Of a stretch of 64,000 nucleotides of DNA, positions 30,197-54,658 are shown one piece after another; position 1 is the first letter of the stretch, and each line of letters begins with the position of its first letter. Below the pieces are notes generated by a model. That model was not told where the DNA came from, made no database searches, and worked only from the letters and a program-made list of their open reading frames with translations. This DNA comes from Radiobacillus kanasensis (lineage in GTDB: Bacteria; Bacillota; Bacilli; Bacillales; Amphibacillaceae), in assembly GCF_021049245.1 (NCBI RefSeq), contig NZ_CP088020.1:1556001-1620000 (forward strand), given 5' to 3'. Both the position numbers and the translations under genes were made by a program.

Positions 30197-30753
30197 GATA
30201 TAGATTGCGACGTAACGAAATATTAAAAGTTACTACAAAACCATCGGTTTAGTGACTGCTCGGTGTGTGTACGATGCTGATTTCCGCTGAGGGCAGTCGC
30301 TTTCCGCGGGCACGGCCTCAGCCTCCTCGCTCGCAAAGAACGCTCACTGTGGGGTCTTCACCTCGTGCTGTTCCCGCAGGAGTCGACTGCCCTCCGCTCC
30401 AATCAACATACTGAATGTGGTAAACGATATATAATGCCGCTAAGAGGTTATAACCAGACAGACAACTGCGTTACCCTTTCGACTTGTTATAGACATATAC
30501 AGTATAACTAATCATTTATTTGATCATAAGGAGCACTTGTTCGAGCTTTTTAGTAATTTTAAAGGACCAAAATATCCGCGTCCCTCTCGAACTGTTACTT
30601 TTTATAAATATAGAGGACTGAATGTGCACAAACAACTTGTATCATTCCAGCGACGGTCTGACAAAAAATCGAAAAGCCTTACTAGTATTCTGCCGGAGCG
30701 TCCATTAAACTTCATAATCTTTTTTATTAATTACGTCGCATTTTATATCAATC
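30197..30753. repeat. inner repeat element with GATATARATTGCGACGTAA ends
   Basis: About 556 bp with terminal inverted repeats: GATATAGATTGCGACGTAAC at 30197-30216 and TTGATATAAAATGCGACGTAA read inward from 30751. Next to the left end is a GC-rich arm (about 30240-30400) of the CCGCGGGCACGGCCTCAG ... TTCCCGCAGGAGTC type, common in Bacillaceae. The right arm seen in the 50.4-54.5 kb copy is missing here. Contains an unoccupied match (30373-30384) to the IS110 target. Noncoding. Confidence 0.65.
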
Positions 30754-50388: not shown

Positions 50389-50624
50389 CTATGTACGACA
50401 TCAGCATGTATAAATTGGTTCCCATTTTGAAAGAAAATTAAAATTGATAGATTGCGACGTAACTCTAATTAGAAATTTATTGAAAGAATGATGAAGTGAA
50501 GCTTGATGCCGCGCTACGGCAGAATACTCCGCTTTCCACGGGTACGGCCTCAGCCTCCTCGCTCGCACAGATCGCTCACTGTGGGGTCTTCACCTCGTGC
50601 TTTCCCGCAGTCATTCATGTATCG

Positions 50625-50812
50625 CGAAAACAGCTATACACCACAGAGAATGAAAATAGTTATTGTGTGGCTATACTGATGCTACGGCTGGATGAGGAAG
50701 GTCGAGACTCCTTGGTGCGTGAGAGCCCTACCCGCAGTCTGACTCCTTCGACCACGGTGCATCACAGACTGTTGCTCCTTTTAAGGGAAGCACTCATGGT
50801 AGATTAACCCTA
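50625..50812 (+). ncRNA. putative IS110 bridge RNA, copy 1
   Basis: A 5' stem-loop (CAGCTATACACCACA near 50631 with TGTGTGGCTATACTG near 50674), then two internal loops. Loop 1: GAGACTCCT (50704-50712) is complementary to the right target flank AGGAGTCTC, and CCCGCAG (50731-50737) equals the left flank. Loop 2: TCATGGTAG (50795-50803) equals the element's right end plus core, and GACT (50768-50771) complements AGTC at the left end; a TGCT/AGCA hairpin lies between them. Boundaries are approximate. The design matches bridge RNAs described for IS110 elements; expression is inferred. Confidence 0.6.
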
Positions 50813-50866
50813 TTCTGGTTGTTGCGCCAGCCTCCATTATTATTTGCCGTAGAAAGGATGTTTTCA

Positions 50867-52090
50867 ATGGATGTAATCATTGAGAATGCTTGTGGTATGG
50901 ATGTCCACAAGGATACCATTACCGCTTGTGCCATTACAACAGAAGGAAAGGAGATTGAAACTTTTTCAACTAAAACCATATATCTAATTGAGTTGGTGGA
51001 CTGGGTGAAGAAACATAAGTGTACCCATGTGGCAATGGAAAGTACAAGTGTCTACTGGAAACCCATTGTCAATCTACTAGAAGCAGAAGATATTGAATAT
51101 CTAGTTGTGAATGCTCAACACATTAAGGCTGTCCCCGGGCGTAAAACGGATGTGAAAGATGCCGAATGGATAGCCAAATTACTTCGTCACGGTTTACTTA
51201 AAGCTAGTTTTATTCCTGATCGAAACCAACGAGAATTACGTGAACTTGTTCGTTATCGTCGAAGTATTATTGAAGAGCGTGCCAGACAATATAATCGGAT
51301 TCAAAAAGTGTTAGAAGGAGCTAATATCAAACTTGGTTCAGTTGTTTCTGACATTATGGGAGTTTCTGCTCGTGATATGCTTCGATCCATATCCGAAGGA
51401 AATGATGATCTCGAAGAGTTAACAACCTTTGCGAGAGGAGTAATGAAGAAGAAAAAGGATGAATTGAAACTCGCACTTCAAGGGTATGTTCAAGAACACC
51501 AACGGTTCATGATAAAAACGATTCTAGATCATATCGATTTCCTGACGGATCAAATCGATAAACTAGATAAAGAGATAGCGAAAAGGATGGAAGACTCTCA
51601 AGAAGATATAGACCGTTTAGATTCCATTCCTGGTATTGGGAGAAAAATGGCGGAACAAATGCTTGCAGAGCTTGGTACAAATATAAAGGAGCAATTTCCT
51701 ACTGCACCTCAAATGTGTTCATGGGCTGGATTAGTTCCTGGAAATAACCAAAGTGCTGGAAAACGTAAATCTTCTAAAACGTTGAATGGAAACAAGTACC
51801 TTAAATCAGCACTGATTGAAGCAGCTCATTCTGTTCGAGGATCCAAAAACTACCTTGGTGCACTTTACCGGCGAACAGCTTCACGTAAAGGTAAAAAGCG
51901 TGCAGGAATCGTTGTAGCTCATGCGATATTACGAATCTCCTATTATCTCTTAACACGAAAAGAAATGTATGTAGATTTAGGAGAAGATTACTTCGACAAA
52001 CAAAGACAACAATCCGTTGTTAAGCATTCACTACGAAGATTAGAGAGTTTAGGTTACACAGTGACAATTGTGGAACCAAAAGTGTCTTAA
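50867..52090 (+). CDS. IS110-family transposase/recombinase, copy 1
   Basis: A 407-residue DEDD recombinase. The RuvC-like domain holds Asp 12 (GMDVHKD), Glu 58 (AMESTSVYW), Asp 95 and Asp 98 (GRKTDVKDAEW). A coiled coil follows, then the C-terminal Tnp domain with the SIPGIGRKMAEQML helix-hairpin-helix-like segment and the catalytic Ser 296 in NNQSAGKRKSS. All catalytic residues are present, so it looks active. I start at ATG 50867, with AGAAAGGATG eight bases upstream. Confidence 0.95.
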   Translation: MDVIIENACGMDVHKDTITACAITTEGKEIETFSTKTIYLIELVDWVKKHKCTHVAMESTSVYWKPIVNLLEAEDIEYLVVNAQHIKAVPGRKTDVKDAEWIAKLLRHGLLKASFIPDRNQRELRELVRYRRSIIEERARQYNRIQKVLEGANIKLGSVVSDIMGVSARDMLRSISEGNDDLEELTTFARGVMKKKKDELKLALQGYVQEHQRFMIKTILDHIDFLTDQIDKLDKEIAKRMEDSQEDIDRLDSIPGIGRKMAEQMLAELGTNIKEQFPTAPQMCSWAGLVPGNNQSAGKRKSSKTLNGNKYLKSALIEAAHSVRGSKNYLGALYRRTASRKGKKRAGIVVAHAILRISYYLLTRKEMYVDLGEDYFDKQRQQSVVKHSLRRLESLGYTVTIVEPKVS

Positions 52091-52223
52091 AATTAATCTC
52101 CAACTTCATTAGATCTTAGAATGTGGCGCTCTCCTCAAAAAAACGAATGAGCTGCGTCTACCTTAGTATTGCCATTTTTCCATATATTAGAACCTTATTT
52201 TCATGGTAGTCATTCATGTATCG

Positions 52224-52411
52224 CGAAAACAGCTATACACCACAGAGAATGAAAATAGTTATTGTGTGGCTATACTGATGCTACGGCTGGATGAGGAAGG
52301 TCGAGACTCCTTGGTGCGTGAGAGCCCTACCCGCAGTCTGACTCCTTCGACCACGGTGCATCACAGACTGTTGCTCCTTTTAAGGGAAGCACTCATGGTA
52401 GATTAACCCTA
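52224..52411 (+). ncRNA. putative IS110 bridge RNA, copy 2
   Basis: Same sequence as the copy at 50625-50812, shifted by 1599 bp. Guide-like segments fall at 52303-52311, 52330-52336 and 52394-52402. Because it lies just downstream of copy 1, it can be reached by transcription across the tandem junction. Confidence 0.58.
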
Positions 52412-52465
52412 TTCTGGTTGTTGCGCCAGCCTCCATTATTATTTGCCGTAGAAAGGATGTTTTCA

Positions 52466-53689
52466 ATGGATGTAATCATTGAGAATGCTTGTGGTATGGA
52501 TGTCCACAAGGATACCATTACCGCTTGTGCCATTACAACAGAAGGAAAGGAGATTGAAACTTTTTCAACTAAAACCATATATCTAATTGAGTTGGTGGAC
52601 TGGGTGAAGAAACATAAGTGTACCCATGTGGCAATGGAAAGTACAAGTGTCTACTGGAAACCCATTGTCAATCTACTAGAAGCAGAAGATATTGAATATC
52701 TAGTTGTGAATGCTCAACACATTAAGGCTGTCCCCGGGCGTAAAACGGATGTGAAAGATGCCGAATGGATAGCCAAATTACTTCGTCACGGTTTACTTAA
52801 AGCTAGTTTTATTCCTGATCGAAACCAACGAGAATTACGTGAACTTGTTCGTTATCGTCGAAGTATTATTGAAGAGCGTGCCAGACAATATAATCGGATT
52901 CAAAAAGTGTTAGAAGGAGCTAATATCAAACTTGGTTCAGTTGTTTCTGACATTATGGGAGTTTCTGCTCGTGATATGCTTCGATCCATATCCGAAGGAA
53001 ATGATGATCTCGAAGAGTTAACAACCTTTGCGAGAGGAGTAATGAAGAAGAAAAAGGATGAATTGAAACTCGCACTTCAAGGGTATGTTCAAGAACACCA
53101 ACGGTTCATGATAAAAACGATTCTAGATCATATCGATTTCCTGACGGATCAAATCGATAAACTAGATAAAGAGATAGCGAAAAGGATGGAAGACTCTCAA
53201 GAAGATATAGACCGTTTAGATTCCATTCCTGGTATTGGGAGAAAAATGGCGGAACAAATGCTTGCAGAGCTTGGTACAAATATAAAGGAGCAATTTCCTA
53301 CTGCACCTCAAATGTGTTCATGGGCTGGATTAGTTCCTGGAAATAACCAAAGTGCTGGAAAACGTAAATCTTCTAAAACGTTGAATGGAAACAAGTACCT
53401 TAAATCAGCACTGATTGAAGCAGCTCATTCTGTTCGAGGATCCAAAAACTACCTTGGTGCACTTTACCGGCGAACAGCTTCACGTAAAGGTAAAAAGCGT
53501 GCAGGAATCGTTGTAGCTCATGCGATATTACGAATCTCCTATTATCTCTTAACACGAAAAGAAATGTATGTAGATTTAGGAGAAGATTACTTCGACAAAC
53601 AAAGACAACAATCCGTTGTTAAGCATTCACTACGAAGATTAGAGAGTTTAGGTTACACAGTGACAATTGTGGAACCAAAAGTGTCTTAA
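52466..53689 (+). CDS. IS110-family transposase/recombinase, copy 2
   Basis: A 407-residue protein identical to the copy-1 transposase, with the same DEDD residues and Ser 296. Start ATG 52466. No frameshift or stop, so both copies are potentially functional. Confidence 0.95.
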   Translation: MDVIIENACGMDVHKDTITACAITTEGKEIETFSTKTIYLIELVDWVKKHKCTHVAMESTSVYWKPIVNLLEAEDIEYLVVNAQHIKAVPGRKTDVKDAEWIAKLLRHGLLKASFIPDRNQRELRELVRYRRSIIEERARQYNRIQKVLEGANIKLGSVVSDIMGVSARDMLRSISEGNDDLEELTTFARGVMKKKKDELKLALQGYVQEHQRFMIKTILDHIDFLTDQIDKLDKEIAKRMEDSQEDIDRLDSIPGIGRKMAEQMLAELGTNIKEQFPTAPQMCSWAGLVPGNNQSAGKRKSSKTLNGNKYLKSALIEAAHSVRGSKNYLGALYRRTASRKGKKRAGIVVAHAILRISYYLLTRKEMYVDLGEDYFDKQRQQSVVKHSLRRLESLGYTVTIVEPKVS

Positions 53690-54658
53690 AATTAATCTCC
53701 AACTTCATTAGATCTTAGAATGTGGCGCTCTCCTCAAAAAAACGAATGAGCTGCGTCTACCTTAGTATTGCCATTTTTCCATATATTAGAACCTTATTTT
53801 CATGGTAGGAGTCTCCGTATTCTGCCTACGCTCGGGAATGGCTTTCTGATAGTTATTTTGAACATTGCTGGAATAGTACAAGTTGATTGTGACATTCAGT
53901 CCTCTATTTTTATAAAAAGTGACAGTCCAGAGGGGCTGGTCCTTTATAATTACGAAAAAGCACCGACACGTGCTCTTTTAAATCAAATAAATGATCAGTT
54001 GTTCTATATATAGGTCTAAAACAAGATGAAAAGGTAAAAAAAGGAACAGGTTTCCGTCTGACTATAACCTCTTAGTAGCATTATATATTATCTACCACAT
54101 ACGGTATGTTGATTGGAGTGGAGGGTAATCGACTCCGCGAAAATAAAGCCCGGTTTTCTTCGTGCAATGTCTATTCTAAGAAGATTTTCTTGTCCTCCCT
54201 CAGTTAGATTTGATTTACTCACAAATGCTCGCTGCGGGAACAGCACGAGTTGAAGACCCCGCAAGATGCACCTGCGTCTTCTAGTAACGCTTTGAAGTAA
54301 GCTTCCTCGGTGCAAGGCAGCAAAGATGATCACTCGATGTAGTAGCCTGGCTGAGGCCGTGCCCGCGGAAAGTGATTATCCGCAAGGGAAATCAACATCG
54401 TACACACACCGAGCAGTCACCAAACCGATGGTTTTGTAGTAACTTTTATTATTTCGTTACGTCGCAATTTATATCAACTACTATTTAAAATTCATTGCTT
54501 GAAAAATCAACAATCTTTTAGAACACAGCCTTTTCTATAAAAGGGCAAGTGGTCTACTTATAAGAGATCGATTGATGAGGTAGTTGTTGCAATGGGATTC
54601 ATTTCTAATTATTATGATGATTGATTTACAGAAATAGACACTCCATTGGTTTAAAATA

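What the first reader, a model, noticed from the sequence alone, without database searches (positions are those of the whole stretch)
50611..52411. IS110 leader RNA whose guide-like loops match its own target and donor sequences
Seen: the insertion site without the IS reads CCCGC-AG-GAGTCTC. The leader of the IS holds CCCGCAG (50731-50737), identical to the left flank plus AG, and GAGACTCCT (50704-50712), the exact complement of AG plus the right flank (AGGAGTCTC). In a second loop TCATGGTAG (50795-50803) equals the element's right end plus AG, and GACT (50768-50771) complements AG plus TC of the left end. In both loops the 5' guide ends in CT and the 3' guide in AG, flanking a small hairpin. 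Known: IS110 recombinases use such a bridge RNA with target and donor loops and a shared core dinucleotide. Inference: this is a working bridge RNA with core AG. The right donor pairing (4 nt) is short.
Basis: partly seen in the sequence, partly recalled or inferred. Interest (0 to 1): 0.78.

Follow-up and report, generated by a model that had tools for sequence, protein, structure and literature searches.

The report
IS110 bridge RNA, guide order reversed
A bacterial jumping gene carries, just ahead of its enzyme gene, a likely guide RNA whose loops spell out where the element lands and where it ends; this is a known kind of system, but here the guide segments stand in the opposite order to the best-studied relatives, so the published rules for reading such programmable recombinases need widening.

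Summary
The window has two identical IS110 copies head to tail (50611-52207, 52210-53806). All 10 copies found in the genome (9 sites) lie at CCCGC|AG|GAGTC of a genomic repeat. In 68 aligned leaders (67 relatives plus this one) the left-target guide follows the left flank: exact over 7 nt in 61 of 65, and in 21 of the 24 whose guide is not the commonest word; the left-donor guide equals the IS right end in 59 of 66. A blind column scan ranked the left-target diagonal first. The alignment folds into two guide loops; G-U over A-C (24:3) favours the gene strand. The right-target guide tracks less strongly; the 4-nt right-donor guide has no support. New: the right-flank complement is 5' and the left-flank copy 3', opposite to IS621 and ISEc21, although the RNA is upstream as in IS110 types; this order was reported for IS1111, whose RNA is downstream. 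A second clade (36-39% protein identity) also has the left-flank guide 3'. Known kind of system, new variant in guide order.

The parts
50611..52207 (+). IS110-family element, copy 1 (1597 bp between AG cores)
   Evidence: ends from copies of the element at 9 sites
52210..53806 (+). second, identical copy, head to tail with the first
50609..50610 (+). AG core, left junction (left flank CCCGC)
52208..52209 (+). AG core between the two copies: right end-AG-left end, the junction expected in the excised circle
   Evidence: identity with a circle junction is inferred
53807..53808 (+). AG core, right junction (right flank GAGTCTC)
50619..50639 (.). hairpin at the left tip with compensatory changes; few wobble pairs, so it may act as DNA
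   Evidence: 48 cells changed on both sides, 6 of 7 pairs; 0 of 500 shuffles as high; 2 G-U, 6 A-C
50672..50677 (+). possible -10 box TATACT inside the left end (consensus match only)
   Evidence: same site in copy 2; relatives nATACT in most of 47 rows
50684..50835 (+). likely extent of the bridge RNA (5' and 3' ends inferred)
   Evidence: closing helix 50686-50689 / 50829-50832 and two loops; strand from G-U 24 against A-C 3
50700..50753 (+). target-binding loop, closed by GGTCG/CGACC
50704..50712 (+). 5' target guide GAGACTCCT, complement of core + right flank
50731..50737 (+). 3' target guide CCCGCAG, identical to left flank + core
50756..50828 (+). donor-binding loop, closed by GGTGCA/TGCGCC
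50794..50802 (+). 3' donor guide TCATGGTAG, identical to right end + core
50767..50770 (+). GACT, proposed 5' donor guide; not supported
   Evidence: no covariation with the left end; GACT three times in the leader
50867..52090 (+). IS110 recombinase, 407 aa (PF01548, PF02371; NCBIfam transpos_IS110)
30373..30384 (+). unoccupied target site CCCGCAGGAGTC in another copy of the repeat

Best explanation
The leader encodes a bridge RNA for the IS110 recombinase that follows it. Its first loop has a 5' guide complementary to core + right flank of the target and a 3' guide identical to left flank + core. Its second loop has, on the 3' side, a guide identical to the IS right end + core; the 5' side matches the left end only weakly. 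The recombinase would use the RNA to bring the excised circle (right end-AG-left end) to the repeat CCCGC-AG-GAGTC and exchange strands at AG. Read on the other DNA strand the core is CT, the 5' guides end in CT and the 3' guides in AG, as in IS621; so the likely mechanism is that of IS621 with the attachment sites inverted relative to the recombinase gene. Shown here: the matches, their covariation, the fold, the favoured strand, the order. Inferred: transcription, binding to the recombinase, strand exchange, and the same chemistry as IS621.
For: 10 of 10 copies found in the genome at matching sites. Left guide = left flank in 61 of 65 elements, shuffled mean 27.6 and maximum 37; 21 of 24 among guides other than the commonest; donor guide = right end in 59 of 66; right-target pairing run 4.74 nt against a permuted maximum of 3.92. 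The five top cells of 1,200 in the blind scan are the left-guide diagonal. RNAalifold consensus with the guides as unpaired sides. Strand: 24 G-U against 3 A-C cells. Order in IS621 from the paper's nucleotide numbers and from an IS621 copy. Recombinase with both IS110 domains, aligned to solved IS621 and ISCro4.
Against: No expression data. The single sequence folds no better than shuffles on either strand, and the covariation term of the consensus fold is small because helices hardly vary. Four of 65 elements have a left guide that does not match (L061, L087, L092, L096) and seven of 66 a donor guide that does not. The right-target guide matches fewer than 4 nt in 12 of 65. No support for a right-donor guide. 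No junction-spanning promoter found by consensus scan, unlike IS621. All nine sites of the own genome belong to one repeat family, so within the genome alone guide and site cannot be separated.
Confidence: 0.9

Rival explanations
1. The RNA is made from the other strand, so that the apparent reversal of the guide order is only a matter of strand.
For: Helices can be written on both strands, and the single-sequence fold of the minus strand is as good as that of the plus strand.
Against: Variable helix cells are G-U on the plus strand 24 times and A-C 3 times (related sequences, so not independent events). On the minus strand the core would lie at the 5' ends of the guides, unlike IS621. The plus strand has a possible -10 box upstream.
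Confidence: 0.06
2. The element is an IS1111-group member whose RNA has moved upstream, so the order is simply that of IS1111.
For: Top-strand guide first, bottom-strand guide second is the order reported for IS1111 elements; exceptions in RNA position are reported within both groups.
Against: 407 aa against 330-350 aa reported for IS1111 transposases. In a tree of 27 transposases it lies with other long IS110-type proteins, apart from IS4321, but IS4321 and IS621 have long branches and that part of the tree is flagged as unsafe. Subterminal similarity is limited to about CATG, and where the right end changes (L118, L120) the left end does not follow.
Confidence: 0.15
3. Guide and flank agree only because the elements and their sites are inherited together; the leader segments have no guiding role.
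For: All sites of the own genome are in one repeat; most relatives share one guide word, CCGTTAG (41 of 65); background cells of the scan reach z 6.2 from relatedness alone.
Against: Guide cells reach z 8.9-11.1 in that scan; 21 of 24 unusual guides have exactly the matching flank; donor guides change with right ends (14 of 17 unusual right ends matched); copies at different sites keep the same guide-matching bases while the surroundings differ.
Confidence: 0.03
4. Within the RNA the guide segments were exchanged, rather than the attachment sites being inverted relative to the gene.
For: In the gene frame the strong guides read the left target and the right end both here and in IS621, as if only their place in the RNA had changed.
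Against: In the RNA frame 5' guides end in CT and 3' guides in AG with a CT core in both systems, as inversion predicts.
Confidence: 0.35

Closest known systems
IS621 bridge RNA system (IS110 group; PMC11208160, PMC11208158)
   Same: DEDD recombinase with PF01548 and PF02371; RNA upstream of the gene; target loop then donor loop; two guides per loop around a hairpin; core dinucleotide inside the guides; insertion into palindromic repeats.
   Different: Guide order reversed in the target loop and, for the one supported donor guide, in the donor loop; core AG on the gene strand (CT in the RNA frame); recombinase 407 aa against 328 aa in the PDB chain; no junction promoter found by consensus scan.
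ISEc21 seekRNA (IS110 type; PMC11187229)
   Same: RNA upstream of the gene, segments matching both target strands.
   Different: Order reported there is bottom-strand match 5', top-strand match 3'; here the reverse.
IS1111-group seekRNAs (ISEc11, ISPa11, ISKpn4; PMC11187229)
   Same: Order: top-strand match 5', bottom-strand match 3'.
   Different: Their RNA is downstream of the gene, their subterminal inverted repeats are longer and their transposases shorter.
G150/G019/G227-type IS110 elements of Bacillales (36-39% identical recombinase)
   Same: Left-flank guide on the 3' side of an upstream leader loop.
   Different: Different leader, ends and targets; right-flank guide only weakly supported.

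Membership tests
IS110 family (broad) | DEDD (PF01548) and Tnp (PF02371) domains | tested here: met
   NCBIfam transpos_IS110 above cut-off; catalytic D, E, D, D and S columns line up with IS621 by eye
IS110 family (broad) | structured RNA with target and donor loops whose guides match flanks and ends and include the core | tested here: met
   three of four guides supported
IS110 group (IS621, ISEc21) | long non-coding region and RNA upstream of the gene | tested here: met
IS110 group (IS621, ISEc21) | left-flank guide 5', right-flank guide 3' | tested here: not met
[quoted passage not shown]
   consensus scan of the dimer junction found only a site inside the left end on this strand
IS1111 group | top-strand guide 5', bottom-strand guide 3' | tested here: met
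   published order
IS1111 group | RNA downstream of the gene | tested here: not met
IS1111 group | subterminal inverted repeats of 7-17 bp | tested here: not met
   in the window's element only CATG and scattered bases are shared; some relatives have CCATGAA at both ends (7 bp), but right-end changes in L118 and L120 are not followed by the left end
IS110 family (broad) | RNA expressed and bound by the recombinase; circle formed | not testable with these tools
   needs experiments

The most novel reading that the evidence does not exclude
Guide order in bridge RNAs follows the polarity of the attachment sites relative to the gene and not IS110 or IS1111 descent. In this Bacillota clade the gene-plus-RNA module has been inverted between its attachment sites while the RNA frame (5' guides ending in CU, 3' guides in AG, CT core) stayed as in IS621, so that one recombination chemistry serves both polarities and insertion orientation can flip in evolution.
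Probability: 0.5. Interest if true: 0.65.

Novelty: new variant of a known kind. Interest (0 to 1): 0.55.

Why it matters
Bridge recombinases are being developed as programmable DNA insertion tools. The published link between RNA position and guide order would assign left and right guides the wrong way round in elements like this one, so guide-finding rules built on IS621 would be mirrored here. The clade also offers a natural series of retargeted guides (11 complete guide words and one partly deleted among 65 elements) from which guide length and mismatch tolerance can be read. The dimer fixes a right end-AG-left end junction in the chromosome, which makes donor recognition testable in place.

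Tried and rejected
Rfam search of 50400-54000 at E up to 1: no match. Folding the single RNA: no better than shuffles on either strand. Covariation of the left end with the 5' side of the donor loop: no diagonal (a few huge z values in that output come from columns without variance under shuffling and were disregarded). A covarying subterminal inverted repeat: not found. A junction promoter: not found by consensus scan. An Enterobacteriaceae element of the long-transposase branch (L154, L177-L180): it lies in the end of an IS3-type orfA by eye, its guides were not recognised, so its order is not determined. Elements of G044, G121, G056, G090, G036 and G149 were fetched and their ends compared, but their guide order was not worked out. 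Palindrome test of relatives' target sites: 14 of 62 have perfect arms of 6 bp or more, about 4% in shuffled controls; suggestive only. In the second clade the right-flank guide was the strict best match among the seven 5' guides only for G019 (both copies) and G139; in the other ten rows it tied or was beaten.

Rows dropped: of the 80 loci, 72 were analysed; L063, L065, L072, L077, L103, L104, L105 and L115 were not entered. Of the 72, 67 were aligned with the window's leader; L045, L047, L102, L109 and L112 were left out, L112 because its leader is broken, the others as duplicates or contig-end copies. 65 of the 68 have a readable left flank, 66 a right end, 64 or 65 a right flank. L093's left junction was mis-parsed by my pattern and set by hand. 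L114's right end was mis-registered by the pattern and counts as a mismatch. For the second clade, L156, L158, L160 and L176 did not match my anchor pattern and L159, L161-L169, L171 and L173 were not examined.

Full report
Observation. The element is 1597 bp between AG cores. Of 100,000 Markov versions of the leader, 4 held any two of the three long matches. No relative among 67 rows with a readable right flank (the window's included) shows such a dimer.

Copies in the genome. A search of the own genome found 10 copies on its two contigs. The ends of nine were read and of the tenth. All lie between CCCGC-AG and AG-GAGTC: 10 copies at 9 sites, the dimer being one site. At 5 sites the right flank reads AGGAGTCTC and matches all 9 guide bases; at 4 it reads AGGAGTCGA and matches 7. 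L006 and L007 have nearly the same surroundings and may not be independent. All sites are in one repeat family whose outer arms are inverted repeats (GGCAGAATAC...GTATTCTGCC, or GGGCAGTCG...CGACTGCCC). 31 unoccupied CCCGCAGGAGTC sites exist and none of the reversed control pattern; freeing two positions (CCCGCAGNNGTC) adds no further site. Because the sites belong to one repeat, the genome alone cannot prove guidance; relatives are needed.

Relatives. 72 were analysed and 67 aligned with the window's leader. Every leader column was compared with every flank position. For the left flank the five highest of 1,200 cells are the five diagonal cells of the left-target guide (65/65, 63/64, 62/64, 64/64, 64/64 matches; z 8.9-11.1), while other cells reach z 6.2 from relatedness. 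For the IS right end the highest cells, apart from a zero-variance one, are on the donor-guide diagonal (66/66, 64/65, 64/65). For the complement of the right flank the highest cell is the first base after the core (58 of 64, 46.1 expected; z 8.1, next 6.1). Over whole guides, left flank and guide are identical in 61 of 65 (shuffled mean 27.6, maximum 37), including 21 of 24 elements whose guide is not the commonest word; right end and donor guide in 59 of 66, including 14 of 17 unusual right ends; right-flank pairing runs average 4.74 nt, permuted maximum 3.92, but 12 of 65 have fewer than 4 nt. Left-guide mismatches are L061 (guide partly deleted), L087, L092 and L096.

Fold and strand. RNAalifold on 47 leaders gave a closing helix, a target loop closed by GGTCG/CGACC with an inner hairpin, and a donor loop closed by GGTGCA/TGCACC with an inner hairpin; the guides are the unpaired sides. 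It also drew two short helices that I set aside, one within the target loop's 3' side (columns 72-74 with 78-80) and one in the donor loop's 3' strand. The covariation term is small because helices are nearly invariant. Over 26 pairs of this fold, cells that depart from Watson-Crick are G-U 24 times and A-C 3 times on the + strand, which favours an RNA on the gene strand; the cells come from related sequences. A separate hairpin at the left tip (50619-50639) has changes on both sides in 48 cells and 6 of 7 pairs, with none of 500 shuffles as high on the covariation score, and few wobble pairs (2 G-U, 6 A-C), so it may act in DNA.

Guide order. In the target loop the guide for the right flank (pairing with the top strand) is 5' and the guide for the left flank (pairing with the bottom strand) is 3'; in the donor loop the right-end guide is 3'. 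In IS621 the left guides come first (LTG 50-58, RTG 77-80, LDG 123-130, RDG 157-165; passages of PMC11208158). I checked this on an IS621 copy: TATCGGGCCT, like the left flank TATCAGGCCT, stands 5' of the right guide. For ISEc21, with an upstream RNA, Siddiquee et al. report bottom-strand match 5' and top-strand match 3', and the opposite order for the IS1111 elements they tested, whose RNA is downstream (parts 1-5 of PMC11187229). So this element combines an upstream RNA with the order reported for IS1111.

Second clade. In 13 loci of seven element types 36-39% identical to the window's recombinase (or, for G227, 85% to G150's), the 3' guide shares 8-11 contiguous bases with the left flank in 11 loci (G150, G019, G139, G073, G227), and is the strict best of six guides there except that G227's and G048's guides are the same word; in G148 and G048 it shares only 6 and 5 and is not better than others. 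These runs include a few bases (TATA) that probably belong to the element's end. The 5' guide complements the right flank convincingly only in G019 and G139, with 6-7 nt in three of five G227 sites and little elsewhere. The left guide is thus on the 3' side there too, while the right guide is weakly supported. The transposase tree puts both clades together, apart from IS621 and IS4321, but those have long branches and deep joins are flagged as unsafe.

Mechanism. Read on the opposite DNA strand, the target is GAGACTC-CT-GCGGG, the core is CT, 5' guides end in CT and 3' guides in AG: the IS621 scheme. I therefore infer the same chemistry with attachment sites inverted relative to the gene. This is inference; an exchange of guide segments within the RNA would look alike in sequence.

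Literature. Searches (listings with titles and starts of abstracts) and the passages or parts read of PMC11208160, PMC11208158 and PMC11187229 gave no statement of this order for an element with an upstream RNA. Figures and supplements were not available; subscription papers and preprints are not held. That IS110 elements often target repetitive elements such as REPs is stated in PMC11208160.

Noticed in passing
window 50609-53808: Head-to-tail dimer of the IS sharing one AG; none of the other rows with a readable right flank shows one. Origin (circle insertion or homologous recombination) not determined.
   Followed up: partly
window 50619-50639 and relatives (alignment A2): Left-tip hairpin with strong compensatory changes but few wobble pairs, as if constrained as a DNA palindrome.
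   Followed up: partly
L157, L170, L172, L174, L175 (G227): By eye, five copies of a related IS110 lie with CAT (reverse of ATG) just left and Shine-Dalgarno-like complements just right, as if the element targets the stretch between ribosome-binding site and start codon.
   Followed up: no
L061: Left-target guide partly deleted although the element lies at the usual CCGTTAG site: possibly a copy that lost its guide after insertion.
   Followed up: no
window 30300-30400 and 31 places in the genome: Genomic repeat with inverted outer arms in two subtypes, hit by this IS; some relatives' targets (CTTCAACTAA...GTTAGTTGAAG) also look palindromic.
   Followed up: partly
G019, G150 (L124-L127): A different IS110 clade inserts a few bases further along what looks like the same kind of repeat (…GAGTCTCCGTGTTT|TTCC…).
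   Followed up: no
G000:C1:1234459-1235652 (L148): A second, distant IS110-type transposase (29% identical) in the same genome.
   Followed up: no
L009, L010: Two copies, one on the plasmid contig and one on the chromosome, carry 12 and 15 substitutions and share most of them; none falls in the guides.
   Followed up: no
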